IMG/VR virus record: IMGVR_UViG_3300028883_000067
Span: 1 to 46,854 of that record
Strand: one strand, 5' to 3'
Source: a virus
DNA: 46,854 bases
Of the stretch, positions 1 to 46,854 are shown in pieces. Position numbers and translations under genes: made by a program. How positions within the stretch are numbered: position 1 is the first letter of the stretch; every line of letters starts with the position of its first letter. The notes beneath the pieces were generated by a model that worked only from the letters and a program-made list of their open reading frames with translations, was not told the DNA's origin and searched no databases.

Positions 1-142
1 CGGCGTCAAAAGGACTGCGTGCGAAACTTCGAGCCACTGCATACTGCGCTCGTACACGCTCTCAATCGGTTCACCGAAGATCGGTAGACCCGCCGCTGCC
101 GCTGCGATGTATCGCAGGCAATCCTCCCACGGCACGAACGGC
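1..142. repeat. Terminal direct repeat, left copy (circular closure)
   Basis: Bases 1-142 are repeated at 46713-46854 with one difference (T at 16, G at 46728). This is the overlap expected when a circular or circularly permuted genome is assembled as a linear contig, so the true unit is 46,712 bp. The difference falls in a third codon position of the gene spanning the junction (GCA versus GCC, both Ala). It may be strain variation or an error. Confidence 0.9.
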
Positions 143-255
143 GAGTGCCCGGCGCGCTGGACCTCTAGCGCCTGTCGAATCCCCCTGCCAACATTTTGCA
201 ATGACCCGCGCGTTGTGTTTGCACTGTACGCGCCCGCAACGTAGATGCGCTTCAT
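1..255 (-). CDS. DUF4406 / nucleoside 2-deoxyribosyltransferase-like protein, N-terminal part (split by contig end)
   Basis: Codons 1-85 of a 120-residue protein that continues in frame at 46605-46854 across the circular junction. The start ATG (253-255) overlaps the rusA stop as ATGA. The N-terminus reads KRIYVAGAYSA, the beta-strand plus glycine loop typical of the DUF4406/nucleoside deoxyribosyltransferase-like Rossmann fold. Later come PWEDCLRYI and VLLTPGHEKSRGT, the latter resembling the family's second phosphate/sugar loop near the C-terminus. Family members are common in phages, and a nucleotide-salvage or base-modification role is usually guessed but not proven. It is translated within the leftward early operon between rusA and a DUF6378-like gene. 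Confidence 0.75.
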   Translation of the reverse strand, partial: MKRIYVAGAYSANTTRGSLQNVGRGIRQALEVQRAGHSPFVPWEDCLRYIAAAAAGLPIFGEPIESVYERSMQWLEVSHAVLLTP

Positions 256-12275: not shown

Positions 12276-12293
12276 CCTATCATGTCCCCTTTC

Positions 12294-13658
12294 CTAGCAA
12301 GCGGCCGCCGCGTACCGAAGGCCGATTCGATCCGCGCGCTCCCGCAAGAACCCCGCCAGCACGGAATACGCCTTGCGGTTGCGCGCCACGAAATCCACAA
12401 AACCCTGCGCATGAACATCGGCAATCCGTGTTACGCCCGGCGCCGTGAAATCCACCAGCGCCTTGCAGAATTCTATATTGCGTTCAAACCCTTTAGGGGA
12501 AAGTGTTCCCCGGAAAATCCGGACCTCGACCGTTTCCCGGTTTGTCAAATTCAAGGCCCGATATCGTTCTGTCCGGTTGTGATTCATTTTCTTCGCAAGG
12601 CGCGCGCGCGTGTCCGGGCCTCCGTGCGATCCCGCCCAGCGCTCTAGGCGGGATGCGTTGCGCCTGGACACAAGGTGTGTGAACGCGCCCCAACCGTCGA
12701 GAAGATGAATCATTTTGTATATTTGCAAATCAGTTAAGGCGCGTTTCGATATGTGAACGTGCATTCCGCACGTCCGGGAATCGTAAGACGTGAAACCGCG
12801 ATTGCGAAGCTTGAAAACCTCGCGCCACGCGGCCGCGCCGTTCTTCTTATGCCACTCCCAGGAGAACGGATGCGAAACGATTTCGAATCCCGATTCTAGG
12901 CTTGAATCACTCTTGCAGTAGAGAAACCCGTCCGAATCCGTTACCTTTTCGGCCGCGTCGGAATTCGATTCGATCCCGCCCGAGTTTTCGATTTCCAGTT
13001 CAACCCCAAAGAACGGGCCGCGAACCGCGCGAACCGTTCCCAGCGTCCGAAAACACGGTTTCGGCTTATAGCTGTAAGAGTGGATTCCCGCGTTATCGTC
13101 GTGGTCCGCGAAGCACGATTCACAATAACTGCATCCGTCCGATTCGCAAATAAACATAGATTCGCGGTCGAATGCTTCGTCGCAACCTTCACAGTACGTG
13201 AACCGGTCGCGCCAACAATCTTCGCAGTAGGCTTCCCCGTTGCCCGGCCCGCATAGGATATAGTCGTTTGATATCCACTCGCCGCAATCTTCACACTGTG
13301 AAAAACGATCGTCGCGGCAGGATTCGCAATAGTAGCGGTGATTGATTTCTGCCAATTCGTCATTTTCAAAGGTTTCTTCGCAATTATGGCACATACCGAA
13401 TCGGTCCGAAAAGCAATCCTCACAATAGGTGTCACCGTCCGGCCCGCGCGAAAGATCGTCCAGGGAATAGGTCTTGCAGCACATATCACACTCAGCGAAA
13501 CGATCCGAGAAGCAATCCGGACAATAATGTTCATTGTCCGGGCCTTCGAGCGCGGTCCCGGGAATGAGCGCGGCGGCGCACTCGGCGCACACGTCTTGTG
13601 GCATGATTAGCGGCCGCCCGTCCGGGCTTCGCGCCGGACCTTGAACCGTCTGGCGCAT
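12294..13658 (-). CDS. Amidoligase (COOH-NH2 ligase) with five N-terminal zinc modules
   Basis: 454 residues. The C-terminal half (about 214-420) matches the glutamine-synthetase-like Amidoligase_2 family: FFGVELEIE (216-224), KSDSSLESGFEIVSHP (249-264), CGMHVHIS (297-304) and YRALNLTNRETVEVRIFRGT (366-385). Residues 24-185 hold five tandem Cys-x2-Cys ... Tyr-Cys-x2-Cys modules, each ending in a form of DRF, resembling LIM-like or treble-clef repeats that probably bind a protein substrate. Such enzymes form amide or peptide bonds, and published genome surveys describe phage versions beside glutamine amidotransferases, as here. ATG follows GGAAGGGGG. Target molecule unknown. Confidence 0.85.
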   Translation of the reverse strand: MRQTVQGPARSPDGRPLIMPQDVCAECAAALIPGTALEGPDNEHYCPDCFSDRFAECDMCCKTYSLDDLSRGPDGDTYCEDCFSDRFGMCHNCEETFENDELAEINHRYYCESCRDDRFSQCEDCGEWISNDYILCGPGNGEAYCEDCWRDRFTYCEGCDEAFDRESMFICESDGCSYCESCFADHDDNAGIHSYSYKPKPCFRTLGTVRAVRGPFFGVELEIENSGGIESNSDAAEKVTDSDGFLYCKSDSSLESGFEIVSHPFSWEWHKKNGAAAWREVFKLRNRGFTSYDSRTCGMHVHISKRALTDLQIYKMIHLLDGWGAFTHLVSRRNASRLERWAGSHGGPDTRARLAKKMNHNRTERYRALNLTNRETVEVRIFRGTLSPKGFERNIEFCKALVDFTAPGVTRIADVHAQGFVDFVARNRKAYSVLAGFLRERADRIGLRYAAAAC

Positions 13659-14981: not shown

Positions 14982-15321
14982 GACTCACACTCTCTCCTCT
15001 CCTCCATGCGAGATTCGGCGCCATCCGTTCAGGATCAAGGGCGCTTTGAGGGTTAAATGGTAGATTTGACAGGGACATGCGATTAGATAACTACGCTCAA
15101 ATCGGATAACCCCCTCCCCCGCATGTAGATACACACAGGATTCAACGCAACGTTTTGTACGTTATGTTGCGCTTGTGTTGCAAGCCGAGAAGAAATACCG
15201 TGTTGCGAGCGCAGGGTAGGACGCGCAGCGCACCACATCCGACGGGCCGAAAAGCTTTTCAATCGCCGGCCGACCGGTTTCGTGCCGAACGTCGCCTTTG
15301 TTGGTGTGATGCCTCAAAAAT

Positions 15322-15338
15322 CCTACGAGCTAAAATTT
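15322..15338 (+). repeat. 17-bp direct repeat, upstream copy
   Basis: CCTACGAGCTAAAATTT occurs here and, identically, at 16228-16244, exactly bracketing the radical-SAM gene with its promoter. The 10-base core GCTAAAATTT occurs a third time at 17040-17049, ahead of another promoter. Confidence 0.8.
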
Positions 15339-15349
15339 CACTTTTCAGC

Positions 15350-15378
15350 TTGACAACCGCTGAATCGCGTGGTATACT
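15350..15378 (+). promoter_or_regulatory. Promoter of the radical-SAM gene
   Basis: TTGACA (15350-15355), 17-base spacer ending GTGG, TATACT (15373-15378), followed 19 bases later by the ATG with GGAGGAGGT between. Near-perfect sigma-70 consensus. Confidence 0.85.
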
Positions 15379-15397
15379 CCTTGTGGAGGAGGTGATC

Positions 15398-16246
15398 ATG
15401 CGACAGTGGCGGAAGGGCGTGGCGGCGTGGAAGATTGGCGACACGCTGTATTTGTCCGTCGTGTTCACATGGGACGTGAAGAAGGCCGTTGCGGCGGCGA
15501 AGAAGCACAAGGGGCCGGTGGTGGTGGGTGGTCCTGCCGCGATGCTGATGCGCGACCGATTCGACGGGATCGCTGAAGTCCGGCAGATCAGCGAGGATTT
15601 CGAGCCGATCCTGATGCACAACCCGCTGGCGTCCTTCTCGACGCGGGGATGCCCGCGAAAATGCGGGTTCTGCGCCGTACCGCGTATTGAGGGCAAATTC
15701 CGAGAAATATGGCCCTTCAGGGCAGCCCCAATGATGTGCGACAACAACTTCCTGGACTCCACCAGGAAGCATCGCCTGCGTGTGATTCGCAAGCTGAAGC
15801 GTTTTCCGCTGGTGGACTTCAATCAGGGGCTAGATGCCCGTAAATGGACGCCCCTGATAGCCAGCGATATGGCGAACCTGAGGCTGCACGCGCGGTTTGC
15901 CTTCGACCACACCAAAGACGAGATCGCGGTTGTGGACGCGATTCGGCTCTGTCGGGCCAAAACGACCAAAAAGGTGAGTGTGTATGTGTTGATTGGCTAC
16001 AAGGACACCCCGGAGGACGCGCTGCACCGGCTCGAAGTCGTGAGGCGCGAGAAGGCGCTGCCAAACCCGATGCGCTACCAGCCGCTCGACGCGGAGAAGA
16101 AGAACTGCTTCGTCCCGAGCAACTGGCCGGAGGCCGAACTGAAGAAGATGATGCGGTACTACTCGCGTCTGCGTTTTGTTTCGAGGATCCCGTACAAGGA
16201 CTTCGACAACAAGGCGACTCGGGCCACCCTACGAGCTAAAATTTGA
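15398..16246 (+). CDS. Radical SAM enzyme
   Basis: 282 residues. TRGCPRKCGFCAVPR carries the CxxxCxxC cluster that holds the 4Fe-4S centre and cleaves S-adenosylmethionine. The preceding part (VVVGGPAAMLM) resembles the end of a B12-binding-like or Rossmann region seen in some radical SAM proteins. Later segments (LVDFNQGLDARKW, VSVYVLIGYKDTPEDAL) fit the barrel strands of MiaB/Elp3-like radical SAM domains. The ATG at 15398 is chosen because a consensus promoter and GGAGGAGGT precede it; a longer frame runs into the promoter. The gene is flanked by a 17-bp direct repeat and followed by a tRNA, suggesting an acquired cassette. Substrate unknown. Confidence 0.8.
   Translation: MRQWRKGVAAWKIGDTLYLSVVFTWDVKKAVAAAKKHKGPVVVGGPAAMLMRDRFDGIAEVRQISEDFEPILMHNPLASFSTRGCPRKCGFCAVPRIEGKFREIWPFRAAPMMCDNNFLDSTRKHRLRVIRKLKRFPLVDFNQGLDARKWTPLIASDMANLRLHARFAFDHTKDEIAVVDAIRLCRAKTTKKVSVYVLIGYKDTPEDALHRLEVVRREKALPNPMRYQPLDAEKKNCFVPSNWPEAELKKMMRYYSRLRFVSRIPYKDFDNKATRATLRAKI
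16228..16244 (+). repeat. 17-bp direct repeat, downstream copy
   Basis: Identical to 15322-15338. It overlaps the last five sense codons of the radical-SAM gene and ends seven bases before the tRNA, as expected if the gene was inserted or duplicated as a unit. Confidence 0.8.
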
Positions 16247-16250
16247 GATT

Positions 16251-16326
16251 GGCCCTGTGGCTCAACTGGCAGAGCGGCTCCTTCGTAACGAGCGGGTTGC
16301 AGGTTCGACTCCTGCCGGGGCCTCCA
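16251..16326 (+). tRNA. tRNA-Thr (anticodon CGT) with encoded CCA
   Basis: A 76-base cloverleaf. The acceptor GGCCCTG pairs with CGGGGCC (one T-G). The D arm GCTC/GAGC has AACTGGCA as its loop. The anticodon arm GCTCC-TTCGTAA-CGAGC carries CGT at 16284-16286, reading ACG (Thr). The T arm is GCAGG-TTCGACT-CCTGC, the discriminator is T, and CCA is encoded. The only defect is a C-C mismatch at the base of the anticodon loop (31/39). Phage tRNAs commonly support late-gene codon use. Confidence 0.85.
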
Positions 16327-16501
16327 AGCCGACCAGAATAAGGCCCATTGCAAGATAGTCGTGACCATTCTGCGGGGTGCCGGAAGTTTGGTCAAGGTTG
16401 CTTGACTTGACGTTGCCGCTCGCAAAGGCAGGTTTCCTTAGTCCTGCCGGCGGATAGCATCAAGTACCGACGTTACGGAACGTCGTCACAGTCTGTGATA
16501 T
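16327..16501 (+). other. Non-coding stretch with strong hairpins and a palindrome
   Basis: No credible gene. Contains the hairpins GTCAAG-GTTG-CTTGAC (16391-16406), GGCAGG ... CCTGCC (16427-16448) and CGACGTT-ACGG-AACGTCG (16468-16485), then the palindrome TCACAGTCTGTGA (16486-16498). None is followed by a T-run, so these are not textbook terminators. They may process the tRNA transcript, form a small RNA, or act as an operator for the promoter at 16553-16581. Confidence 0.5.
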
Positions 16502-16561
16502 CAAGATTTCTCATATTTCCTCTTGACAACCCAAGATTTCTCATATTTCCTCTTGACAACC
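16502..16561 (+). repeat. Perfect 30-bp tandem duplication carrying -35 boxes
   Basis: Two identical 30-base units (16502-16531 and 16532-16561), each starting CAAGATTTCTCATATTT and ending TCTTGACAACC. Each unit contains a TTGACA box, but only the second has a correctly spaced -10 box. Confidence 0.9.
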
Positions 16562-16581
16562 TCCGAATTTGGTTGTATATT
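16553..16581 (+). promoter_or_regulatory. Promoter of the small basic-protein operon
   Basis: TTGACA (16553-16558), 17-base spacer, TATATT (16576-16581), followed by GGAGGAGGAGG. The -35 box lies in the second tandem repeat unit, with the TCACAGTCTGTGA palindrome about 55 bases upstream. Confidence 0.8.
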
Positions 16582-16599
16582 ACTACTGGAGGAGGAGGC

Positions 16600-16758
16600 G
16601 TGATAACGGAAGCGGAGATACGGGCCAAGGGCAGCAGGCCATGCGAAGAAAGGGGAGAAATAACATGGCGCGCAATCGAAGAGGCAAACGGGACGGCACG
16701 GGGCCGCACAAGGACAGCTACCAGCGCCGCAAGTACGGCAAGGGCAAGCGACGCATGA
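16600..16758 (+). CDS. Possible overlapping 52-residue ORF (GTG start)
   Basis: GTG right after GGAGGAGGAGGC, beginning ITEAEIRAKGSRPCEERGEI. Its C-terminal half is low-complexity Thr/Ala/Arg and overlaps the basic protein in another frame. The strong site suggests translation of at least the start; it might be a leader that couples to the next gene. Confidence 0.3.
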   Translation: MITEAEIRAKGSRPCEERGEITWRAIEEANGTARGRTRTATSAASTARASDA

Positions 16759-16784
16759 GGGGCATCAAATGTCCGCGTCGCTGA
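16665..16784 (+). CDS. 39-residue very basic protein
   Basis: MARNRRGKRDGTGPHKDSYQ and then Arg/Lys-rich GKGKRRMRGIKCPRR. The type occurs in many phages, usually unannotated. AAGGGGAG lies eight bases before the ATG. A net charge this high suggests nucleic-acid binding. Confidence 0.65.
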   Translation: MARNRRGKRDGTGPHKDSYQRRKYGKGKRRMRGIKCPRR

Positions 16785-16840
16785 TGCTGACGTTCCTGCG
16801 GCTCATGTTCATGTTCTGCTTGAAGAAGTGCGATGCCTGA
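16769..16840 (+). CDS. Possible 23-residue hydrophobic micro-protein
   Basis: ATG after GAGGGG, encoding SASLMLTFLRLMFMFCLKKC, a short hydrophobic helix with a basic end. Overlaps both neighbours by a few bases. Confidence 0.35.
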   Translation: MSASLMLTFLRLMFMFCLKKCDA

Positions 16841-17018
16841 CGCCTCAGAGAACCCCGACAAGAACGCGCAGAGCCGCCTCATTGAGGACGTGGAAGCGCG
16901 CCTCGACTACTTCCGCAGAGAGTACGACCTGACGTACTGCAAGGCGGTTGGCGCGCTGGAGATCGTCAAGGAGGGCATACTGCTGGAGCTTTTCTCGACC
17001 TGTTCTGAGGATGACTGA
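16833..17018 (+). CDS. Hypothetical 61-residue acidic protein
   Basis: Helical protein (VEARLDYFRREYDLTYCKAV, then LEIVKEGILLELF) overlapping the micro-ORF by eight bases. No family recognised. Confidence 0.55.
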   Translation: MPDASENPDKNAQSRLIEDVEARLDYFRREYDLTYCKAVGALEIVKEGILLELFSTCSEDD

Positions 17019-17072
17019 CGCTGCCTTATTGTGCATCGTGCTAAAATTTTGTGCATTTTTTTGTAAAATAAC

Positions 17073-17101
17073 TTGACAAACACCACAAAATGTGGTATGT
17101 T
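17073..17101 (+). promoter_or_regulatory. Promoter of the glycan cassette, with palindromic spacer
   Basis: TTGACA (17073-17078), 17-base spacer, TATGTT (17096-17101). The spacer includes the perfect dyad CCACAAAATGTGG (17083-17095), placed where a bound repressor would block RNA polymerase. GCTAAAATTT and an AT-rich tract precede it. Confidence 0.75.
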
Positions 17102-17107
17102 TCCAAT

Positions 17108-17327
17108 AGATGCGGGCGTTGGCTGTTGACGGATGGCCGGCCTCGCTTAAAGGGCCGATGAGGCCCTGGCTATAGCCCGGCAGCGTCAGCCGGCTTGGGG
17201 TGTGGGCCTACAAGGCCCGGCGACAGGAGCTTGGTTTGTGGGTCCGACCCACAAACGGCACCCAACGCCTCCGTGTGACGCGGGACTGCGCAGCCCTGCG
17301 GAGGCAGATGCTCAGGAGACCGCCTTC
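17108..17327 (+). ncRNA. Structured leader RNA (riboswitch-like)
   Basis: About 220 untranslated bases between the promoter and the GTG of the fusion gene. A long-range stem GGCGTTGG (17114-17121) with CCAACGCC (17262-17269) encloses local hairpins: GGCCTC...GAGGCC, CCGGC-AGCGTCA-GCCGG, GGGCC-TACAA-GGCCC and TTTGTGGGT-CCG-ACCCACAAA. The 3' strand of the closing stem shares bases with a competing stem GCCTCCG...CGGAGGC just before the start, an arrangement seen in riboswitch expression platforms. CAGGAGACC before the start resembles a B12 box, but the other cobalamin-riboswitch core blocks are missing. Class unknown. Confidence 0.55.
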
Positions 17328-19163
17328 GTGGCGTTTAGCGATTGTGTTCTGATGCGCAATGCGGCCGGCCGAGAGGTTCTTGCGGCCGACGAAGATGTGG
17401 AGTCGCTGAAGGATTTGGGCTTTGTAGCCTGTGGGGGCCGCGGCGCCGATATCCCAAGAACCATCACCCCTCCGCGTGCCACAAAACCGGCCCCGGCCCC
17501 CGCCATTTCCTGCAAGATTCCCCAGACGCTCGTTGAGATCGACCCGTCAAGCGCCTGCACTCGTCGGTGCCCTTTTTGTGACCCCGGAATACCGAAAGGC
17601 CGTCGGGCGAAGCGTCGCTTTTTGAGTCTCCGGGTCCACAACAAGATGATTAACAAGTTGGCGGCGGCTGGGTTCGATCAGAGAGAGAGTCAGGTATGTT
17701 ACTGTGGTCATGGGGAGCCGTTTCTACATCCGAACATCATTGAAATGATGCGTTACACCCGAAGAGTTCTCCCGAACGCGAGACTGACGGCGTTTACCAA
17801 TGGTGATCCGTTTCGGGCGGAGCGCGGGGTGGAGATGCTGTGCGCTCTGGAGGCGCTGGACATTGACGTGCTGGTCTGGAGCGTTTACGGCGACCGCGGC
17901 AGGCCGGACAGCACAACGCGCGAGTTTCCAAAGCAAGTGCGGGCCTCCAGCCTGGACCCCGGGCGTGTGCATGTTAACGATTACGTCGGCGGCCTGGAGG
18001 GGGCGTCCAGCCGGTCTGGCACGGTCTGTAGGCCGCGCAACGCTTTCCGGTCAGACCCGTGCGAGTTTCCGTCCAAGAAGCTCTTTCTAGCTGCCGAGGG
18101 CTATTGGCTTTTGTGTTGTGAGGATTATGGACAGCGAGTTCGTTTTAGCGGCAGGCTGGGGCCGGTGGAGCTAAACAAAGACCGCAAGTTTGTTTCTGCC
18201 AAGTCCCTTGCGTCCGAAGGGCGCCGCAAGGAGGGGTTGATTTGCCGTGTTTGCGACCGCTGCGGCAGTGCCCCAGATGGATACAGGCACGTTCCCCTTT
18301 TGGTTGGCAGTCGCTTCTGGCCGCCCCCGCCCCCCGCGATTCCGAAGGTTGGCGGGCGCCGGTTGGTGGTTTTGGCGACCAACTGGCGCTGGCAGGACCA
18401 CGCTCTTGCCGCCATCGACGCAATCGAAGCTGCGTCTACGATGCGCGGCCGGCTGATGCTGTTGTGGAACGACGATGAACACCCGAAGTGTCCGCCCGCA
18501 TTACGCAGAAAAAACGTCATTGTCAAGGAGTTTCCGGGGTCGCTTGGCTGGTGCGGCATCAGTCGGGGTATCAGCTATGCTTTGCGGTATGCCGTAAAGA
18601 AGGGTTATGGATGGGTTGTAAAGATCGACACCGACACGGCCATTCTGCGGAAGGGGTGGGACGCTTGCTTGTGCGCGGAGTGCGCACCAAACGAGCAGAT
18701 TGGGACGCTGATGGATGCGGCGCTTGTCGGACAGATTCCAAACAATTCCGACGGGCTGGATGACGGCTTGTTTATGCACTCTTTGGCGAAGTTTTGCAGA
18801 TGGAGTCGTGGTTTCGTTCGCCAGTGGAGACGCCGATGGGACCACATCCAAGGTGGCTGCTACGTGATTGGGATAGAGGCCCTGCGAAGAATTGAACGTG
18901 TTGTGGGTTTGGGTGCGCAGGATCAAGAAGCTTTGCAGGACGGTGAACGTGTTGGCGAGGACGTGTACCTGGACACAAAGTGTAAGGTTGCCGGCGTCCC
19001 ACAACGGGACTCCATGTTGTGCAGGATTTGGTTTCGGATGCACGGAACGGGGGAGCTTTCCATAGAACAGGTACGACACCAGCGGGATAACGTCGGGGCA
19101 GTGGTGTTGCACCCAATCAAGAACCTCGATACGTTGCGCGTTTTAGCAGAGGAGATTGTTTGA
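17328..19163 (+). CDS. Radical SAM/SPASM protein fused to a GT-A glycosyltransferase
   Basis: 611 residues from a GTG with AGGAG nine bases upstream; a longer frame from GTG 17202 would run through the structured leader. Residues 65-200 form a radical SAM domain: CTRRCPFC (77-84) binds the 4Fe-4S cluster and CGHGEPFLHPN (126-136) is the SAM-contact strand. Cys-rich 234-312 (CRPRNAF, LLCCEDYG, CRVCDRCG) looks like a SPASM auxiliary-cluster region. Residues about 345-600 resemble a nucleotide-sugar glycosyltransferase, with KIDTDTA (432-438) as the DxD metal site. A joint peptide- or sugar-modifying role is inferred. First gene of a five-gene overlapping operon. Confidence 0.75.
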   Translation: MAFSDCVLMRNAAGREVLAADEDVESLKDLGFVACGGRGADIPRTITPPRATKPAPAPAISCKIPQTLVEIDPSSACTRRCPFCDPGIPKGRRAKRRFLSLRVHNKMINKLAAAGFDQRESQVCYCGHGEPFLHPNIIEMMRYTRRVLPNARLTAFTNGDPFRAERGVEMLCALEALDIDVLVWSVYGDRGRPDSTTREFPKQVRASSLDPGRVHVNDYVGGLEGASSRSGTVCRPRNAFRSDPCEFPSKKLFLAAEGYWLLCCEDYGQRVRFSGRLGPVELNKDRKFVSAKSLASEGRRKEGLICRVCDRCGSAPDGYRHVPLLVGSRFWPPPPPAIPKVGGRRLVVLATNWRWQDHALAAIDAIEAASTMRGRLMLLWNDDEHPKCPPALRRKNVIVKEFPGSLGWCGISRGISYALRYAVKKGYGWVVKIDTDTAILRKGWDACLCAECAPNEQIGTLMDAALVGQIPNNSDGLDDGLFMHSLAKFCRWSRGFVRQWRRRWDHIQGGCYVIGIEALRRIERVVGLGAQDQEALQDGERVGEDVYLDTKCKVAGVPQRDSMLCRIWFRMHGTGELSIEQVRHQRDNVGAVVLHPIKNLDTLRVLAEEIV

Positions 19164-19765
19164 TGTACGCCGAAACGGACCAAGAAGAGCAGTTCATTCT
19201 CGATAATCTTCCGGGACCGACCGGGTGGTTCATTGACGTGGGTGCCTTCGACGGAGTGACGAAGAGCGCGACCAGACGCCTTTGGGAGCTTGGGTGGTCA
19301 GGTGTCCTGGTGGAGCCGTCCCCGGAGGCGTTCATCAAGCTTTCCCAGAACTATCCGGATCGCAAGCGCGTGTCCCTGCTGAACGCGCCGGTCCTACCAG
19401 AGCGTCGGATCGTGCAGTTTTATGATGCGGGTGGGCATGGGGTGGATTCGGTAGACATGCGACACGTTGCAGCCTTTCGGAAATCTGGCGCGCAGTTCAG
19501 GAAGCACTACGCGGTTAGCGTCGCTCCGGCAGAGATTCTGGAAGCGTGGGGACCGCAGCGATGGCGTTTCCTGAACATAGATGCCGAGGGGGTTTCGACG
19601 GATATTCTGAGGGCGTTTCTTCGGGAGGGTGTTCCAACCCTGGACGTGGTTTGCGTGGAGACAGAGAACCGCAAGGGCGAGATTGTGGACGCGATGAACG
19701 TTGCCGGCTTTACGCTTGGCCTGGAGACGCAGTACAACCTCCTGTTCAGTCGAGGAAACCAGTGA
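19163..19765 (+). CDS. FkbM-family methyltransferase
   Basis: 200 residues. FIDVGAFDGVTKSATRRLW is the S-adenosylmethionine-binding loop, GVLVEPSPEAF the acidic ribose-binding strand, and FLNIDAEGVSTDIL the conserved FkbM motif. These enzymes O-methylate sugars of natural products and surface glycans. ATG overlaps the previous stop (TGATG), site GAGGAG. Confidence 0.85.
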   Translation: MYAETDQEEQFILDNLPGPTGWFIDVGAFDGVTKSATRRLWELGWSGVLVEPSPEAFIKLSQNYPDRKRVSLLNAPVLPERRIVQFYDAGGHGVDSVDMRHVAAFRKSGAQFRKHYAVSVAPAEILEAWGPQRWRFLNIDAEGVSTDILRAFLREGVPTLDVVCVETENRKGEIVDAMNVAGFTLGLETQYNLLFSRGNQ

Positions 19766-21796: not shown

Positions 21797-22335
21797 GCAA
21801 GCGCAAAACACCAACGGCCGGCGTTCCGGAACACCTGAAACACCTGAAGCCGCTGCACAATAAGGAGCAGTGGACGCCCGCCGAGGTCGAGCGCGTCGAG
21901 AAGGACGTTGAGCGCGGGAAGGAAATTGCCGAGAGCGCGATTGGCCGGGCGTTGACGGCACCGTCGCCGGCCAAGGCCACGGAAATCATTGAGAAGTGGG
22001 GCCGCCGCACAGACATCCGGGGACAGTTCTCAAAGGCGTATTTGCACCGGGAGTTCGCAAGGCAGGGCCTCACGCTGGAGGAGCTTGTCGCGCAGCACCT
22101 CGGAATTATCCGGGGCGGCAAGAACATTCGCCCGGCGGACCAGTTGAACGCGATCAAGCTCGCCTATCAGGCCGCGGGCCTGCTGGGCGGGGACGGCGGG
22201 ACCAGCGTGAAGGGCGCGCTTGACGTGAGCAGCCTTGCGGAGAACGAGCTTGTGAAGATCATCCAGACCGTCGAGGTGCGCAAGCAGCCCACCATCGACG
22301 CGGAAGCCAAGGTTGTCGAAGAGGACACAGAGTGA
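21793..22335 (+). CDS. terS: Terminase small subunit
   Basis: 180 residues, ATGA overlap with the preceding gene and immediately upstream of the large terminase. Charged helical protein (EVERVEKDVERGKEIAESAI) with a central HLGIIRGGKNIRPADQLNAI segment typical of phage small terminases that recognise the packaging site. Assignment rests on position and composition. Confidence 0.7.
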   Translation: MSKRKTPTAGVPEHLKHLKPLHNKEQWTPAEVERVEKDVERGKEIAESAIGRALTAPSPAKATEIIEKWGRRTDIRGQFSKAYLHREFARQGLTLEELVAQHLGIIRGGKNIRPADQLNAIKLAYQAAGLLGGDGGTSVKGALDVSSLAENELVKIIQTVEVRKQPTIDAEAKVVEEDTE

Positions 22336-24617
22336 CCGACCGCGACACACTTGAACTGAAAGCCGCGGCCGCCGTCGAGCTTGGGCGTCGGCGCGCGAAG
22401 GCAGACCTCTACTGGTTTGCCCGCGAAATCCTCGGCTATCAGGACTTGAATCCCAAACTGCACGGCGAGGAGCTTGTGCCCTTCATCACCCGCAAGGGCC
22501 GCCAGCGCCTCGTCCTGCTGCCGCGCGGGCATCTCAAGTCCACCCTGGCGACGATTGCGAACTGCCTGTGGCGTATCATCCAGAACCCAAACATCCGTAT
22601 CCTGCTGGCGAACGCCGTGGAGTCAAACGCGGAGAGCTTCCTGCGGGAAATCAAGGCCCACATCACCGGGAACGAGTCCTTCCAGAGGTTCTTCCCCGAG
22701 TTCACGCTGGAGAATGACGGGTGGACGCGCTGGAAGAGCCAGACCATTACAGCCAAGCGCAGCAAGCGCATGAAGGAGCCGACCATCAGCATCGTCGGCA
22801 TGGGTGGCGCGCTTGCGTCCCAGCACTACGACCTCATCATCATGGACGACCTTGTAGAGCGGTCGCACGTCGAGACCGAGGGCCAGCTTGAGAAGGCGAA
22901 GCTGTGGTACAAGGACGCGCTGGACCTGCTGGAGCCGGACGGGGAGCTTATCTACATCGGTACGCGCTGGCACGACGTGGACCTCGCAGGCTGGCTCATC
23001 GACGAGCATTCGGACAGCTTCAAGTTCGAGGACGGTTCCTCTGCCGTTATGGTGCGGCAGGCCATCGAGGATGACAAGTGCATCTTTCCGGAGAAGTTCT
23101 CTAAGGAAATTCTCGCTGAACTGAAGAGGCTGAAGGGGCCGTGGGAATATAGCTGCAACCCGGCAGAGGCTCCCGTTTGGATGGCAAACGGCACGTTCAA
23201 GCCGATTTCGGAAGTCCGGCCGGGCGACAAGGTAATCGGCTTCGAGCGCGGCTGCGGCCGGAAGGGCGGCGCCCACAACAGGCTGGTCGTGTCGGAAGTG
23301 CTCGCTACCGGCAGCAAACTGGCTCCCGTCCAGACGCTTGTGTTCGAGTCGGGCCGCTGGTTGCGTTGCACGCCAGACCACCGCTGGTACACTGGTCGGA
23401 ACGACGGAAGCCATAAGCTCTATAAACCCGCAAGGGTGGGTAGTGTGTTGTTCCGCGCGGTGCATCCCGCCGACATCAGCATGCTACCTTTGGTGGTCCA
23501 GAAGTGGTGGCGGTACCTAGCTGGCATCATCGACGGGGAAGGCTCTTGCAAGTTTAGCAACGTTGTTATCCACCAGTCTGAAACAGATAATGGGCCAGTC
23601 TGCCGTGCCATCGACCTTGCGTTGAAGATGGTGGGCGCGAAGTGCAGCACCAAAACCAAGCCCAAGCCAGAGCGAATTATGCGCTACTGGATCGTGAACG
23701 GTGCTCGGCAATTTCGCTCAGACCTCATCAATTACGGCGAGCCAGCCAAACGCGAACAAATCCTACGCGGAATCATTGGGCGCAGCAAGGCGTTCCCAGA
23801 GAAGGAGCGCGTGGCAGAGATTTTACCGCCAGGGCCGGCGGAGCGTGTCTACTCCATGCAGACCACCACTGGCAACTACGTGGTGTGGGGAATCGGCTCC
23901 AAGAACTGTCAGTACATGAACGATCCATTGCCGGAAAGCGAGGTTTGTTTCAAGAAGGGCTGGTGGGTGTACTATGCCGAGGGGGACTTCCCGCGCGATG
24001 ACATGAACCAACTGCTTCCGCGTCGCCGCTATATCACCATTGACCCGGCGTGGACGACGAACCGCACGAGCGACTTCACGGGCATCATTGTGAACTGTGT
24101 AACGCCCGACGACCATTGGTATTTGGTCGATGCGTTCCGCCTGAAAATTACCAGTGACCAGTTGCTCGACCTGTTGTTTGAGTTGTACGGAACGTACAAG
24201 CCGCACCTGATCGGCCTTGAAATCCACGCGATGCAGCGTATTTTCCGCGACATGCTGCCCAAGGAGATTCAGCGGCGCGGTATACCTCTTCCAATTTACG
24301 ACCTGAAGCCCTCTGGTGGCGCGTTTGGGTTGGCGTCCAAGGGCGAAAGGATCATCGGGTTGCAGCCGCGAATGTCGAACGGCTTCATTCACTGGCCGAC
24401 AAAGGCGAACGATTCGCGTTCTCTAGCGTCGGAGGGACTGGAAATTCTCCGAAATCAGATGCTACGGTTTCGGTATCGCCACACGTCTAAGAAGATGGTG
24501 GACAACTTGCTGGATGCACTCGCGTACCAAATTGATATTGCGCAAGCCCCCATCGTAACATCGGAGGAGGAACTGCCAGAGCGCGCATACAACCAGTTCA
24601 CGGGGGCCGTTGCGTAG
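22332..24617 (+). CDS. terL: Terminase large subunit interrupted by an in-frame intein
   Basis: 761 residues before splicing, about 510 after. The ATPase part shows Walker A LLPRGHLKST (62-71) and Walker B LIIMDD (168-173). The nuclease part begins at YITIDPAW (567-574, Asp571) and ends with the acidic NLLDALAYQ. The conserved WEYS|CQYMNDP junction between the two domains is split by a 251-residue intein (275-525). Without splicing the packaging motor should not fold. GTG start overlaps the small-subunit stop. Confidence 0.9.
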   Translation: MTDRDTLELKAAAAVELGRRRAKADLYWFAREILGYQDLNPKLHGEELVPFITRKGRQRLVLLPRGHLKSTLATIANCLWRIIQNPNIRILLANAVESNAESFLREIKAHITGNESFQRFFPEFTLENDGWTRWKSQTITAKRSKRMKEPTISIVGMGGALASQHYDLIIMDDLVERSHVETEGQLEKAKLWYKDALDLLEPDGELIYIGTRWHDVDLAGWLIDEHSDSFKFEDGSSAVMVRQAIEDDKCIFPEKFSKEILAELKRLKGPWEYSCNPAEAPVWMANGTFKPISEVRPGDKVIGFERGCGRKGGAHNRLVVSEVLATGSKLAPVQTLVFESGRWLRCTPDHRWYTGRNDGSHKLYKPARVGSVLFRAVHPADISMLPLVVQKWWRYLAGIIDGEGSCKFSNVVIHQSETDNGPVCRAIDLALKMVGAKCSTKTKPKPERIMRYWIVNGARQFRSDLINYGEPAKREQILRGIIGRSKAFPEKERVAEILPPGPAERVYSMQTTTGNYVVWGIGSKNCQYMNDPLPESEVCFKKGWWVYYAEGDFPRDDMNQLLPRRRYITIDPAWTTNRTSDFTGIIVNCVTPDDHWYLVDAFRLKITSDQLLDLLFELYGTYKPHLIGLEIHAMQRIFRDMLPKEIQRRGIPLPIYDLKPSGGAFGLASKGERIIGLQPRMSNGFIHWPTKANDSRSLASEGLEILRNQMLRFRYRHTSKKMVDNLLDALAYQIDIAQAPIVTSEEELPERAYNQFTGAVA
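23154..23906 (+). mobile_element. Intein (Hint domain with LAGLIDADG-type endonuclease) in terL
   Basis: Runs from Cys275 to Asn525 of the precursor. Block A is CNPAEAPVWMANG, followed by PISEVRPGDKVIG. Block B is WLRCTPDHRWYT, with the T-x-x-H pair. The C-terminal blocks are VYSMQTTTGNYVVWG and GIGSKN, with Cys526 as the +1 nucleophile. The penultimate residue is Lys rather than the usual His. YLAGIIDGEGS (395-405) is a single LAGLIDADG-like motif, so a homing endonuclease is present but perhaps reduced. The flanks rejoin as WEYS-CQYMND. Confidence 0.9.
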
Positions 24618-43400: not shown

Positions 43401-44042
43401 GAATCCTTGACTACCATCTCTGCCGGGCTGCTGTTCGATGTGATGAAGTATTGGACGGCGACCGCCGAAGGCAAGCCCGAGACGGCTGAGCGCATGAAGC
43501 AGAAGGTGATTCGAGCCTTGAGACACGAGGGCATCGCGCGTCTTGTCGAGGGTGCGCAGGCTATGGCGAGAGGCGAAACACGCTACCCCTCGCGCAGCAA
43601 GATCAAGTCGTTTTTTGGCATCCAGGAGGGCGCCAAGAAAGATGACATGGGGGCAGTTGAGGCCCTGATGCACATGCTAGGTGCGCCGACCGAGCGTAGC
43701 TTCCGCGAGCGGGAGTCCATTCAAGAGGTGGGCGCGGAGAAGGAACAGCGCAAGGCGCGTCTTGTTCCCTACGAGGAGCGTATGCTCTCGCTGCTTCGGG
43801 ACGGGGACCGCCAGGGTGCGCTTGAGGTGGCAACAGAAGCCGCTGAACTGTGGCAGGATACTGAGGGAGCGCAGGGATACCCGTTCACGTCCTCCACGAT
43901 CCGCGCCGTTTTCCAGAAGGCAACCCGCACACGCCGGGAGCGCGCGGAACGTACAAGGCCCAGGCCCGGTTCGCGGGAAGAGGCGGAGGCAAGACTGGAA
44001 AGGGAAGTGGGAATCCGAGAAAGGGAGGAGGAGTCATGGTGA
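40449..44042 (+). CDS. Large internal virion protein (1197 residues)
   Basis: The largest gene. A Pro-rich start (MPEPVVSQPEPLEVSPLPPF), several Ala/Arg-rich helical regions, a middle part with weakly hydrophobic helices, and a basic C-terminal tail. Overlaps the previous stop (TAATG). No muramidase or protease motif is evident by eye. By size and position it resembles podovirus internal or ejection proteins, but a tape-measure-like role cannot be excluded. Confidence 0.6.
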   Translation: MPEPVVSQPEPLEVSPLPPFVGPPVDFGATVQAEREATEVVRPARRFRLSPREVGASLRQALRGGAEIAGAVAGVAERIALPLELRAPPETVRTQTWLELQPDMYRQLSDVINVPSEFIKAINRLKIPPTRATPHAGPTIRDVLEWRKWALKFQKRGGALQDVLREATDPAGGVGLLRALGAPAEALGASAVEAAQILTEEAEAEVGLHGEPIVQDPLLRILGAGARQFKEAGGMPGGPDALTPEEVAFGAEKIPEAAERRFGKAVSRDPWVQAAGLAEEILPPLIVEAFPAAMARAAATKARDAAVKITDNMFKTMLNAGVGADDAARAIVRDAARRGSDRFADIAAAAYRAAHKTTHTASVTLDDAPALGLSLRKAVNTTPEVADFARRTDELVPWKPFLPETATDEQLEAAARLQAYLSEKIARANSIRVGRGDAPLTMGDAQKLAIKQQGITGKTIMQMNALETKNFADDVLSSVDRAGIVKAARSPEYVFKGTGIWRRVDEAQNAINRDLENYIGRTQNRVAAVRKSLESEAKRRGWSVKDTYIRFLKMRAGEDTPKTLSEQKILGRLESLWDDMAARRAEAGLETIKDNYFTKLFIDKPTAYRGTRTRVEGEAQETVEQFLARGGDPDIPRALEANIKETVRLQHSIPAKAAMMQEAQHLPANLKSAAEDLANVMLGRRFRGMGNEFARKLARFFHFQKLSFSPAKPARNFLVQGLGHNFAEFGADNLAHGLKTFRTKDGELLRRAATRTHGLRELAGTEQALGELAGKSFGSADEYASHLLDRISEVGLKWYRTSEVQWNKTIGFHAGFRRELKELASAGDEGAKALLKGDRWKELSRAVLSGQEANLKSFIDSGEWSAWQRAIPKAQEAVRRVHFMYGMSDRPAFLRSPFFRAFGVFATWPVKRAEMVADWGEDVYKAYRLLQQGKEGASRLLLRRAMKPLRYLVGGKGLTVAGGVAGWNLRHSMFPDFVRGNFDPESLTTISAGLLFDVMKYWTATAEGKPETAERMKQKVIRALRHEGIARLVEGAQAMARGETRYPSRSKIKSFFGIQEGAKKDDMGAVEALMHMLGAPTERSFRERESIQEVGAEKEQRKARLVPYEERMLSLLRDGDRQGALEVATEAAELWQDTEGAQGYPFTSSTIRAVFQKATRTRRERAERTRPRPGSREEAEARLEREVGIREREEESW

Positions 44043-44512
44043 GGTGGCTGTGGGTGTTGGTGCTGGTGTTCTGCGCTGGATGCAGTTGGCAGTACACGCC
44101 AGAGCAGCAGGTGGAAGTGGACAAGTGGCGTGCGGAGGCGAAAACGGCAGCCGCCGAGCTTGCGGAAGCCAAGGAACTCATGGAGGCGAAGTGGGCCGAG
44201 GTCAAGAAGTGGGAGGCGCGGCTTGCTGACGGCAAGTGGCGCGATCTTTCTCTTGCCGAGATTCAGGAGGGGGTTGCTTTCGCGCGCCAGTCATACAACG
44301 AGGCCGTGGTGAAGGTCGCGCAGCTTGAGGGCCGCTACAAAAGCGCAGCCGAGAGTTTCAAGGCGGCGAAGGAGGCTGGAGTCCCGACGTGGCGGCTTGT
44401 TCTGGAGGGTGTTGCCGTCGTGCTTCTGGGGCTGTTCGGCGGCAAGCGAAACCTGCCCGCGCTCATCGGCGCTGGCGCCGACAAGGTAGCGAAGAAGCTG
44501 AACGGAGGCTAG
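44036..44512 (+). CDS. Lipoprotein with coiled coil (spanin-like)
   Basis: 158 residues. A short signal peptide (WLWVLVLVFCAGC) ends in a lipobox-like CAGC, followed by a long coiled coil (EVDKWRAEAKTAAAELAEAK) and a C-terminal hydrophobic stretch (LVLEGVAVVLLGLFG). It is the last rightward gene, where lysis genes often lie. An outer- or unimolecular-spanin function is inferred. Its stop shares the palindrome CTAG with the stop of the opposing gene. Confidence 0.6.
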   Translation: MVRWLWVLVLVFCAGCSWQYTPEQQVEVDKWRAEAKTAAAELAEAKELMEAKWAEVKKWEARLADGKWRDLSLAEIQEGVAFARQSYNEAVVKVAQLEGRYKSAAESFKAAKEAGVPTWRLVLEGVAVVLLGLFGGKRNLPALIGAGADKVAKKLNGG

Positions 44513-44793
44513 TAGACACGGCGCCACGAACCGCCGTAGCGCTTCCATTTACCATCCTTTGAGACGCCGCGCTTCCACTCTTCTCGGGTGAAGGCGCGGC
44601 GTTTTCCAAAGGCCCTTTCGATTCCCTCGGCTTCCTTGGCGTCCCAGCCGCGGTGCCCCCGGATAGCCTTGTCTCTCTTGTCGCGTCGCGGCAGCGGGTG
44701 CTCGCCACCTCCGTCGTAACCGTCGTCCCACTTTACCTTGTTGAGTATCTTTTGCTGCCGGTCTATGCGCATCTTCTCGGGAAGCTCAGGCAT
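44509..44793 (-). CDS. Hypothetical 94-residue protein, last gene of leftward operon
   Basis: Basic and Trp-rich (GYDGGGEHPLPRRDKRDKAI, SKDGKWKRYGGSWRRVY). Its TAG overlaps the TAG of the rightward transcript, so the two operons converge with no spacer. Function unknown. Confidence 0.6.
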   Translation of the reverse strand: MPELPEKMRIDRQQKILNKVKWDDGYDGGGEHPLPRRDKRDKAIRGHRGWDAKEAEGIERAFGKRRAFTREEWKRGVSKDGKWKRYGGSWRRVY

Positions 44794-45366
44794 CTACGGC
44801 TCCTCCTCTCCGTTTACAACGGCTGCCTCGTATGTCGCTTTGGGTTGGTCGGCAAGCAACTTAAGAACCTTGCATCGCGCCACGTCTGAAATGAACACGT
44901 TTCTGATTTCGATACCAAAGCCACGGAGGCCGGCTGCCAGCCCAGCTTTCAGGTCGGCGTCTATCTGGTCGGCGTCGGCCATGACCTCGGATAACTTGCG
45001 CTTCCACATTCCGCGCTTAACAGCCGCAAGCCCAAGGTCTCGCAGGGCCTCCTCCGGATCGTGCACCCTCGAAAGGGCCAGCAGGGGGTCACGTATCTTC
45101 CAGACCACGATTGCGCCAACAGCAAGCGGCTCCCCTTCCACCGTGATAACCTGACTTGGCAGGTTGGTGGTTTGCCGCACCACGGGGACAGTGAGCAGTT
45201 GCGTCCAGAACGGCCACCAGACAACGAGACATCCGGACCCCACGGCTCTCGGCTTGCCCCTCACGAACGCCACTCCGCCCTCATAGCTTGGGATGATTGT
45301 GAGGCGGGGGATCAGGCGTCCGAAGAAGCGAACAATATCCCCAACCCAACCAAGTGCGCCGTTCAC
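44794..45366 (-). CDS. SPFH/Band-7 (stomatin-like) protein
   Basis: 190 residues. IIPSYEGGVAFVRGKPRAVG followed by LVVWWPFWTQLLTVPVVRQT, the IVVWKIRDP strand and VKRGMWKRKLSEVMAD match the N-terminal beta-sandwich plus alpha region of SPFH/Band-7 domains, membrane-scaffold proteins. The amphipathic start (VGDIVRFFGRLIPRL) could anchor it. Phage-encoded members are uncommon; a role at the host membrane during infection is possible. GTG start with GGGAG six bases upstream. Confidence 0.7.
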   Translation of the reverse strand: MNGALGWVGDIVRFFGRLIPRLTIIPSYEGGVAFVRGKPRAVGSGCLVVWWPFWTQLLTVPVVRQTTNLPSQVITVEGEPLAVGAIVVWKIRDPLLALSRVHDPEEALRDLGLAAVKRGMWKRKLSEVMADADQIDADLKAGLAAGLRGFGIEIRNVFISDVARCKVLKLLADQPKATYEAAVVNGEEEP

Positions 45367-45367
45367 A

Positions 45368-45487
45368 TCAAACTCCCAATCTTAGGCCGGAGTCGTGGCG
45401 GTGGAAGCGGTGGAAGCGGCAACCGAGATGGGCTTCGCGGAGCCGCATCAGTTTGTCCGCTTCGGCCCGGTCCTTGCCTTCAAGCAT
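45368..45487 (-). CDS. 39-residue His-rich ORF
   Basis: ATG directly after AAGGAGGAGGT; MLEGKDRAEADKLMRLREAH then a His-rich end (CRFHRFHRHDSG). Good ribosome site and snug fit between genes; the His/Cys cluster may bind metal. Confidence 0.5.
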   Translation of the reverse strand: MLEGKDRAEADKLMRLREAHLGCRFHRFHRHDSGLRLGV

Positions 45488-45496: not shown

Positions 45497-46354
45497 TTAC
45501 GCGGTCAGCGTCACACTGATGCTGTTTTGGCGGTGCGAACCGTCGCGCTCAAACGGGCGAATGTCGATGCGCGGCGTGCCGAGCGGCACGGGGCGGTAGC
45601 CGCGCTTCTCGCCGTAGCCTGCCGCGCCGTCATCGTAGGTCTTGAGGTAAGAGCCGGTGAACACGCCAAGCTGCGTCCGGTGAACCAAGGACAGGCAATT
45701 CCGGTCGGCGTCCGTGTAGACGTTGCTCTTGGCGTCCTGTTCGTGGAGGTGCCCGATGAGCACGAGGTCCGCGTAGGGATACATCTCCATGAACCGGACG
45801 AGCCGGTTCGTGCGACCGCCGGGACTCTGCGCTGCGCCCGCGCCGTGGTGCGCGAAGATGCGGTAAGTGCGGTTGGGACCGTTTTTGGCATTGGGTGTAC
45901 GCTTCTTGAACGCGATGTCCAGCAGGCAGGAGTAGCCGAGGTCGCGGACACCAAGCTCCTCGACCATCCAGTGATGGAGCCGCTGTGAATGCTGAATCTC
46001 GTACTTGTCCTCGTGGTTCCCGTACAACATGCCGACGCACTTGTCCTTGATGGGCTTGAGCGCGTCCACCACGAGTGCCTTCATGTACTCGCCCCAATAG
46101 GCAAGCGACTGAAGCGGAATGCCCGGCGTTACCGTGTCCGCATCCCACCGCTTGTCGCTGGGACCGATGAAGTCCGCGTAGTCGCCCATGCCGAGCCAGA
46201 GCGCCAGCGGGTCCGCAGCTATCTCTGCCACGGTTTGCTTGAACAGTTTGTACGCACACCCCTTCGCGCCGAGATGGATGTCTCCCAGCGGATAGAGGTG
46301 GTACTGCGCCCCGCGCTGTTTCATGTGGATGATGTGCTTCCCGGCGGCTATCAT
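45497..46354 (-). CDS. Calcineurin-like metallophosphoesterase
   Basis: 285 residues with all metal-site motifs of the family in order: LGDIHLG, GMGDYAD, YGNHED, AHHGAG and GHLHEQ. These bind two divalent metals and hydrolyse phosphomono- or diesters. It is a single-domain form, not a full SbcD. Substrate could be nucleic acid or a nucleotide signal. ATG overlaps the upstream stop as ATGA. Confidence 0.85.
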   Translation of the reverse strand: MIAAGKHIIHMKQRGAQYHLYPLGDIHLGAKGCAYKLFKQTVAEIAADPLALWLGMGDYADFIGPSDKRWDADTVTPGIPLQSLAYWGEYMKALVVDALKPIKDKCVGMLYGNHEDKYEIQHSQRLHHWMVEELGVRDLGYSCLLDIAFKKRTPNAKNGPNRTYRIFAHHGAGAAQSPGGRTNRLVRFMEMYPYADLVLIGHLHEQDAKSNVYTDADRNCLSLVHRTQLGVFTGSYLKTYDDGAAGYGEKRGYRPVPLGTPRIDIRPFERDGSHRQNSISVTLTA

Positions 46355-46608
46355 TCCTTGCCCTCCAACATGGCGTCCAGTTTGTCAGCGTACCCACACA
46401 AGTCCACCAAGTTATCGTGCTTGTGGCCGTTGGCTTGGCGGGAGAGCTTGACGCACATCAAGAAGGTTACACCCTGCTCCGGCGTCATGTCGATGCCGGT
46501 CATCAGCTTGAACAGGGCGCAGGTGCGCGCGAAGTCCTCCCGGATGGGACCGTAGCTCTTGGCGCGATCCCCGTTGACAAGTTCGTGGGCCTCCAGTGCG
46601 GCGCTCAT
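46351..46608 (-). CDS. DUF6378-like phage protein
   Basis: 85 residues. HELVNGDRAKSYGPIREDFA and FLMCVKLSRQANGHKHDNLV with VDLCGYADKLD are the conserved blocks of DUF6378, a frequent phage protein of unknown role. Start chosen at the ATG that overlaps the DUF4406 stop. Confidence 0.7.
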   Translation of the reverse strand: MSAALEAHELVNGDRAKSYGPIREDFARTCALFKLMTGIDMTPEQGVTFLMCVKLSRQANGHKHDNLVDLCGYADKLDAMLEGKE

Positions 46609-46854
46609 GTTTCCACCGCTTGCTTCAGGTCGTGTAGCGACGAGAACACTGGGATGCCAAGCGCGAGGGCGTTGTCGATTTCGGCTTTTGTGCCCCGGCT
46701 CTTCTCGTGTCCCGGCGTCAAAAGGACGGCGTGCGAAACTTCGAGCCACTGCATACTGCGCTCGTACACGCTCTCAATCGGTTCACCGAAGATCGGTAGA
46801 CCCGCCGCTGCCGCTGCGATGTATCGCAGGCAATCCTCCCACGGCACGAACGGC
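46605..46854 (-). CDS. DUF4406-like protein, C-terminal part (split by contig end)
   Basis: C-terminal portion of the same 120-residue protein whose start lies at 255 on the minus strand. It includes the VPWEDCLRYIAAAAAGLP helix and the VLLTPGHEKSRGT loop. The 142-base overlap means bases 46713-46854 and 1-142 encode the same residues twice in the linear representation. Confidence 0.75.
   Translation of the reverse strand, partial: PFVPWEDCLRYIAAAAAGLPIFGEPIESVYERSMQWLEVSHAVLLTPGHEKSRGTKAEIDNALALGIPVFSSLHDLKQAVET
46713..46854. repeat. Terminal direct repeat, right copy
   Basis: Matches 1-142 except one base (46728 G versus 16 T). See left copy. Marks circular closure. Confidence 0.9.

What the first reader, a model, noticed from the sequence alone, without database searches (positions are those of the whole stretch)
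44794..45366. Phage-encoded SPFH/Band-7 protein
Membrane-organising SPFH proteins are rarely carried by phages. In bacteria some are linked to protease control and defence. It is in the early operon with a metallophosphoesterase and a DUF4406 protein, perhaps a host-takeover or counter-defence set.
Basis: partly seen in the sequence, partly recalled or inferred. Interest (0 to 1): 0.5.

Follow-up and report, generated by a model that had tools for sequence, protein, structure and literature searches.

The report
Phage-encoded minimal stomatin-like (SPFH) protein
This bacterial virus really does carry a gene for a small membrane-organising (SPFH) protein, but such genes are already known in many phages; what stands out is that this one is a cut-down stomatin-type version without the parts that normally build a cage.

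Summary
ORF 44794-45366 (-), 190 aa, is a genuine SPFH/Band_7 protein: Pfam PF01145 8.1e-18, 65.5 bits against a cut-off of 23.6. A fold model (pLDDT 79) matches stomatin SPFH domains at Z 18-19.

The premise "rarely carried by phages" fails. One SPFH lipoprotein family alone is in 736 of 50,697 phage records, and papers report SPFH genes in T4-like, Ackermannviridae, Bruynoghevirus-related, Schitoviridae and satellite phages.

This copy differs in type. It groups with bacterial slipins/stomatin rather than with the HflK/C-like phage proteins. It has no transmembrane helix but a strongly amphipathic N-terminus. It stops right after the SPFH domain, so the wall helix, cap helix and C-terminal strand that close stomatin cages are missing. 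No phage record in the collection matches it. Its nearest sister found is a Vibrio integron-cassette protein (30% over 104 residues).

The gene is second-last in a long leftward operon that runs through the contig ends; a 142-bp end overlap shows the genome is essentially complete. Function is inferred: a peripheral membrane protein that modulates host SPFH/FtsH or membrane patches. Host takeover or counter-defence is neither supported nor excluded.

The parts
44794..45366 (-). SPFH/Band_7 protein, 190 aa, GTG start, RBS GGGAG
   Evidence: Pfam PF01145 8.1e-18
44878..45297 (-). SPFH domain proper (residues 24-163)
   Evidence: fold model of residues ~11-165 at pLDDT 75-91, Z 18.8 to stomatin SPFH
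45319..45363 (-). predicted amphipathic N-terminal helix (residues 2-16) in the place of the slipin transmembrane helix
   Evidence: helix in model; hydrophobic moment 0.81-0.92, no 19-residue stretch above KD 1.42 against 2.28-2.60 in 5 slipins
45368..45487 (-). possible 39-aa leader ORF, ATG with AAGGAGGAGGT, its stop overlaps the SPFH start region (TGATGTG): likely translational coupling
   Evidence: coding status not tested otherwise
45497..46354 (-). metallophosphoesterase-like protein, 285 aa (upstream neighbour)
   Evidence: PHROG 7339 5.5e-23; Pfam Metallophos 20.3 bits, just under cut-off
46351..46608 (-). DUF6378 protein, 85 aa (upstream neighbour)
   Evidence: PF19905 3.5e-16; the start at 46608 is my choice
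46605..46854 (-). 3' part of a DUF4406 / deoxyribosyltransferase-like gene; its 5' part is at 1-255 (-), the gene is 120 aa when the ends are joined
   Evidence: PHROG 355 2.8e-09, PF14359 21.1 bits, just under cut-off; junction; the N-terminal 85 aa alone matched no Pfam family
44509..44793 (-). 94-aa ORF directly downstream (stop TAG followed at once by ATG), last gene of the leftward operon
   Evidence: only PHROG 14021 at 0.011
1..142 (+). left copy of the terminal overlap (141 of 142 identical to 46713-46854)
46713..46854 (+). right copy of the terminal overlap

Best explanation
A phage-encoded, slipin/stomatin-derived minimal SPFH protein. Shown: SPFH domain, stomatin-like fold (model), no transmembrane helix, no room for the wall helix, cap helix and C-terminal strand that close SPFH cages. 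Inferred: it sits on the cytoplasmic face of the host membrane through its amphipathic N-terminal helix and the hydrophobic face of SPFH1, cannot close a stomatin-type cage alone, and so works as a small membrane-bound interactor. Most likely it binds or enters host SPFH assemblies (HflKC-FtsH, QmcA or slipin rings), or membrane patches next to them, and shifts proteolysis or membrane properties in favour of phage proteins during infection. I put identity at about 0.97, the peripheral cage-less form at about 0.8, and the host-SPFH-modulator step at about 0.3.
For: Pfam 8.1e-18. Fold model pLDDT 79 with core 75-91; Foldseek top human stomatin 9e-16, VIA Z 18.8. Tree: inside the slipin/QmcA group (95/93 without, 97/98 with the cassette sisters) and away from HflK, HflC and the phage proteins 44RR, RB43, Pasto, V1VFA-S and Fnu1. 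Bacterial matches 23-30% identical, best 59.7-59.9 bits; 118 of the 120 match rows printed have open frames of 248 aa or more, so 190 aa is short. Amphipathic helix and lack of TM. The C-terminal tail of the model is disordered (pLDDT under 50 from residue 169). Of 29 C-terminal columns conserved in 30 slipins it keeps 6 and has a gap in 11. Human stomatin closes its 16-mer cage with wall helix, cap helix and C-terminal beta-barrel (PMC12344292, passages). At the SPFH1 inter-subunit salt bridge E59-R70 named there, this protein has S27 and K38 (alignment; the numbering of that alignment is my own, fitted to the residues the paper names); all 30 slipins have E and R. Intact frame, good ribosome-binding site, G+C 60.0% against 61.3 +/- 3.4% in 28 other ORFs: a resident phage gene.
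Against: No step beyond fold and anatomy is tested. Loss of the E59 equivalent and only a conservative K at R70 also weakens direct co-assembly with host stomatin-type rings. No relative was found with a known interaction. The window holds no NfeD gene and no FtsH search was run. The tree placement rests on a long branch (6.09 without the cassette rows), and the sequence make-up differs from the alignment's. Only 21 of 61 slipin-conserved core columns are kept, so function may have drifted far.
Confidence: 0.5

Rival explanations
1. Stand-alone membrane protector: it coats or stiffens the inner membrane, or recruits envelope-stress proteins as YdjI does for PspA in Bacillus, to keep the cell energised until lysis.
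For: Amphipathic helix and hydrophobic SPFH1 stretch. YdjI is an SPFH protein without a transmembrane anchor that localises PspA and affects membrane fluidity (PMC8581546, abstract and passages). Stomatin makes flat, stiff membrane patches (PMC12344292, passages).
Against: Those examples form large assemblies or need integral partners; this protein lacks the cage parts, and no YdjG/H-like partner was sought or found next to it. The neighbours are nucleotide/DNA-metabolism-like.
Confidence: 0.25
2. Decision or protease modulator of the HflKC kind, as several authors propose for phage SPFH genes: it steers FtsH and so a lysis-lysogeny choice.
For: HflKC modulates FtsH turnover of lambda CII; the same idea is proposed for CSP3, AH14b and Bruynoghevirus SPFH genes (PMC10269572, PMC4936722, PMC8540360; passages).
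Against: Sequence and tree put it with slipins, not HflK/C. No integrase was identified in the ORFs scanned, though not every ORF was scanned. PMC8540360 itself notes SPFH genes in obligately lytic phages.
Confidence: 0.15
3. Counter-defence or host-takeover protein, acting on a membrane defence effector.
For: Position in a long leftward operon opposite the virion genes. The nearest sister found lies in a Vibrio integron cassette array, a context that can carry adaptive and defence genes (recalled, not shown here).
Against: No PADLOC match; no defence gene or anti-defence relative found; a cassette location is not evidence of defence.
Confidence: 0.1
4. A captured host slipin fragment without function, on its way out.
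For: Truncated at the C-terminus relative to all slipins aligned; 40 of 61 conserved core columns changed; absent from 9 of 9 named kin.
Against: Intact frame, strong ribosome-binding site, tight stop-start spacing to both neighbours, native G+C, confident SPFH fold from a divergent sequence: a decaying fragment would hardly keep these at 30% identity to its source.
Confidence: 0.1

Closest known systems
Bacterial slipins / stomatin (e.g. human stomatin, Pyrococcus PH1511)
   Same: SPFH1-SPFH2 fold (Z 15.3-18.8); 23-30% identity; stomatin is top by sequence in PDB
   Different: No N-terminal hairpin/TM, no wall or cap helix, no C-terminal strand; SPFH1 salt-bridge residues changed to S27/K38; no NfeD partner in the record
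Phage SPFH lipoproteins of PHROG 200 (44RR, RB43, Vi01, T5-like phages)
   Same: Phage-encoded Band_7 proteins
   Different: 263-307 aa with a long C-terminal part, on the HflK/C side of the tree (44RR and RB43; Vi01 only); the window protein matches PHROG 200 only at 0.024 and is not found in the record by that family at 0.01
Short SPFH protein of a Vibrio campbellii integron cassette (L023 5722-6381) and its Ferrimonas copy (L026)
   Same: Ends just after the SPFH domain, shares the RQTTNL stretch, 30% identity over 104 aa; sister in the tree, 97/98
   Different: Cellular, in an attC array; the N-terminal half does not align well; the Ferrimonas copy has an early stop
173-aa 'HflK protein' A0A6J7WFI0 of an uncultured Caudovirales phage
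   Same: Phage-encoded, SPFH-only length, TM 0.71/0.78
   Different: 22% identity in the aligned part; its sequence and gene context were not available to me

Membership tests
SPFH / Band_7 superfamily | Pfam PF01145 over its gathering score | tested here: met
   65.5 bits against 23.6
SPFH / Band_7 superfamily | SPFH fold | tested here: met
   model pLDDT 79; Z 18.8 at 1.6 A over 105 residues to 8gn9
Slipin / stomatin subfamily | phylogenetic place with slipins/QmcA rather than HflK/C | tested here: met
   95/93 and 97/98 in two trees, with long-branch warnings
Slipin / stomatin subfamily | N-terminal hydrophobic hairpin or TM helix | tested here: not met
   best 19-residue KD 1.42 against 2.28-2.60 in 5 of 5 slipins
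Slipin / stomatin subfamily | wall helix, cap helix and C-terminal strand for cage closure | tested here: not met
   protein ends at the position of the early wall helix; tail pLDDT under 50
Slipin / stomatin subfamily | NfeD partner gene | tested here: not met
   PF01957 none in the record at E<=1, control rings in 13 of 14; not all slipins have one (recalled)
Phage SPFH lipoprotein family (PHROG 200) | match to the PHROG 200 profile | tested here: not met
   E 0.024 by hmmscan; no match at 0.01 in the record
HflK / HflC | NCBIfam equivalog score | tested here: not met
   27.7 bits against 159.4 for hflK
Known or candidate defence system protein | PADLOC model match | tested here: not met
   0 families at E<=0.1; anti-defence proteins are not what that library holds
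Cage-forming SPFH complex | closed oligomer at the membrane | not testable with these tools
   needs purification and microscopy

The most novel reading that the evidence does not exclude
Phages and integron cassettes share a branch of SPFH-only proteins that, lacking the cage-closing parts, insert into or cap host SPFH rings as natural dominant negatives, opening or disabling HflKC-FtsH or slipin compartments during infection.
Probability: 0.1. Interest if true: 0.65.

Novelty: new variant of a known kind. Interest (0 to 1): 0.3.

Why it matters
SPFH genes are common in phages, yet the papers seen here only guess at their role (lysogeny, entry, protease control). A natural 190-aa version without the cage-closing parts is a handy tool: it asks directly whether the SPFH domain alone, tied to the membrane by a short helix, is enough to act on host FtsH/SPFH assemblies. 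If it is, phage SPFH genes are modulators rather than cage builders.

Tried and rejected
Relatives by single-sequence patterns: none in viral contigs or genome contigs. Patterns from P0001 plus the Vibrio cassette: none of 90 stretches in viral contigs, one locus (Ferrimonas) out of 170 stretches in genome contigs. P0001 plus 5 slipins: none of 82 stretches. Slipins alone: 3 loci of 43 stretches, all full-length slipin types, one probably host flank (L064). tblastn of P0001: 0 of 50,697 phage records at 0.01, 2 of 72,556 plasmid records. Slipin P0002: 18 of 50,697 phage records, several of which look like bacterial contigs. P0001 in 398 Pseudomonadota genomes at 1e-15: none; that threshold is strict, with the best match elsewhere at 3.4e-16. 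The Vibrio protein in 394 genomes of the Ferrimonas order: only the known copy; in phages: none. Closer kin phages by TerL or by the 1197-aa protein: none. By major head protein: single sequence none; by alignment the best 80 of 167 loci kept, 42 of the 80 searched for Band_7, 1 of 42 positive with a different type. The nine named kin searched are 8 of the 30 head-protein records and 1 of the 1,327 terminase records.

Considered and rejected: HflK/C ortholog; PHROG 200 member; a cassette-derived gene in the window itself (no attC array was seen in the stretch read, but no attC model was run). The idea that stomatin's R67-D89 pair is lost was dropped, because the slipins aligned lack it too. 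The first fold model (2 sequences, pLDDT 54.9) was replaced by the second. The first tree used a gapped copy of P0001 by a script error and was redone; Vi01 was left out there for its long branch, and a second tree left out the two short cassette-type rows. Vault proteins and FliL also appear in the fold list at lower Z; they share the SPFH-like fold and were not followed.

Full report
What was checked. The ORF at 44794-45366 on the minus strand is 190 aa with a GTG start and a GGGAG ribosome-binding site. Pfam gives one family at E<=1, Band_7 (PF01145), 8.1e-18 and 65.5 bits against a cut-off of 23.6, over residues 24-163. The six-frame search of the record finds the same place and no other. 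phmmer against PDB sequences puts stomatins first (7.4e-08).

Where it sits. The record is a virus record of 46,854 bases, classed as without end repeats. Its first and last 142 bases are the same but for one mismatch, so the map closes at about 46,712 bases and the genome is essentially complete. On the closed map a long leftward run of tightly spaced ORFs goes from about 14.2 kb down through the junction to 44.5 kb; it includes a DnaC-like helicase loader. Terminase, portal, head and tail-fibre-like genes run rightward. The SPFH gene is the second-last gene of the leftward run. Upstream lie a DUF4406-like gene split by the contig ends, a DUF6378 gene, a metallophosphoesterase-like gene and a possible 39-aa ORF; downstream is a 94-aa ORF whose ATG follows the SPFH stop directly. 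So 'early operon' is plausible by position but not shown: no expression data exist here and no sigma-70-like promoter was found between 43900 and 46854.

Is a phage SPFH gene unusual? No. The SPFH protein of Aeromonas phage 44RR finds 736 of 50,697 phage records by tblastn at 0.001, 713 of them over at least 80% of the query. The 44RR, RB43 and Vi01 proteins match PHROG 200, named only 'lipoprotein'. Papers report SPFH genes in 44RR, Aeh1 and RB43 (PMC1524935, passages), CSP3 (PMC10269572, passages), GIB1 (PMC13239085, passages), Vi01-like phages (PMC10892097 and PMC3220722, passages), Bruynoghevirus-related phages, KPP10 and PAK-P3 (PMC8540360, passages), phage X1 (PMC13384950, passages) and the AH14b satellite (PMC4936722, passages).

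What kind of SPFH protein it is. Against 369 gammaproteobacterial genomes its best matches are slipins of about 250-270 aa, 28-30% identical, best 59.7-59.9 bits; 119 of 369 genomes match at 1e-9 ('slipin' is my reading, from the annotated Acidiphilium protein that aligns with them). In trees it falls with slipins and QmcA, not with HflK, HflC or the phage proteins 44RR, RB43, Pasto, V1VFA-S and Fnu1. The group support is 95/93 when the cassette-type rows are left out; with them it is sister to the Vibrio cassette and Ferrimonas proteins at 97/98. Branches are long, and the tool warns about such joins. The Vibrio protein (L023 5722-6381) lies between attC-like repeats of a cassette array, has 30% identity over 104 aa and also ends after the SPFH domain. 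It is itself rare: one record in plasmids, none in phages, and only the Ferrimonas copy in 394 genomes.

Anatomy. Slipins start with a transmembrane segment (KD 2.28-2.60 in 5 of 5 tested); this protein has none (1.42) but has a strongly amphipathic start, moment 0.81-0.92. The second fold model, from an alignment of the window protein with four proteins of fetched loci, has mean pLDDT 79.1: a helix at 2-16, SPFH1 strands at 21-61, the SPFH2 alpha/beta domain at 65-164, and a disordered tail from 169. VIA-align gives Z 18.8, 1.6 A over 105 residues to the Pyrococcus stomatin SPFH domain, and Z 16.7, 5.0 A over 165 residues to full-length human stomatin. In human stomatin the cage is built with the wall helix, cap helix and C-terminal beta-barrel, with an SPFH1 salt bridge E59-R70 between neighbours (PMC12344292, passages). 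Here everything after the early wall helix is absent, and the two salt-bridge positions are S27 and K38 (alignment), where all 30 slipins aligned keep E and R. It keeps 21 of 61 conserved core columns and 6 of 29 C-terminal ones. The record holds no NfeD.

Distribution. None of 50,697 phage records matches at 0.01. None of 9 named kin by head protein or terminase has any Band_7 protein. Of 42 IMG/VR records with a related head protein, one has a Band_7 protein, a 265-aa lipoprotein-like type with a long C-terminal part; many of these records are fragments. Full-length slipins do occur in phages: L063 carries one between a UvsX-like and a helicase gene (gene names by my reading of the ORFs). 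A structure search of viral proteins lists a 173-aa 'HflK protein' of an uncultured Caudovirales phage at TM 0.71/0.78, so an SPFH-only phage protein is not unique to this window.

How it probably works. Shown: an SPFH domain, no transmembrane anchor, no cage-closing parts. Inferred: peripheral attachment to the inner face of the host membrane by the N-terminal helix and SPFH1, and action through contacts with host SPFH/FtsH assemblies or the membrane itself. I rate the host-SPFH modulator model highest (about 0.3), then a membrane-protection role like that of YdjI with PspA (PMC8581546, passages; about 0.25), then an HflKC-like effect on lysogeny (0.15), counter-defence (0.1) and decay (0.1). 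PADLOC gave no match.

Print status. Full-text searches for phage with SPFH, stomatin, prohibitin, Band 7 or slipin terms gave no paper that, in the listing or the passages I read, describes a slipin-type or SPFH-only phage protein. The library lacks most subscription papers, and I did not read every listed paper.

Verdict. Real, correctly located, correctly named; the stated rarity is wrong; the functional idea is open. A new variant (slipin-type, SPFH-only) of a known kind (phage SPFH proteins).

Noticed in passing
1-142 and 46713-46854: The record's ends overlap by 142 bases with one mismatch, although it is classed as without end repeats; the genome map closes at about 46,712 bases.
   Followed up: yes
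22332-24617 (+): Large terminase of 761 aa whose residues about 256-527 match Mycobacterium phage portal proteins, one annotated as intein-containing: probably an intein inside the terminase.
   Followed up: partly
11556-13658 (-): Amidoligase-like gene (PF12224, 4e-09) next to a weak glutamine-amidotransferase-like gene in the leftward operon.
   Followed up: partly
15155-19765 (+): Two radical-SAM-like ORFs, a methyltransferase-like ORF and a tRNA-Thr(cgt) at 16251-16326 between the two gene runs.
   Followed up: partly
44036-44512 (+): Lipobox-like start and a hydrophobic C-terminal stretch in the last rightward ORF, convergent with and overlapping by 4 bases the end of the leftward operon; possible lysis or envelope protein.
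   Followed up: no
L063 2679-3443: Full-length slipin (254 aa) between a UvsX-like gene and a helicase gene in a T4-like viral contig.
   Followed up: partly
L065 1-10693: Viral contig with T4-like head genes (my reading of the ORFs) next to a Cas3 gene (PF18019 2.1e-22), CRISPR-like repeats and a slipin: a phage with CRISPR parts or a chimeric contig.
   Followed up: partly
L026 5701-6381: Ferrimonas senticii carries a near copy (87%) of the Vibrio SPFH cassette with a stop near its start and no repeat array around it.
   Followed up: partly
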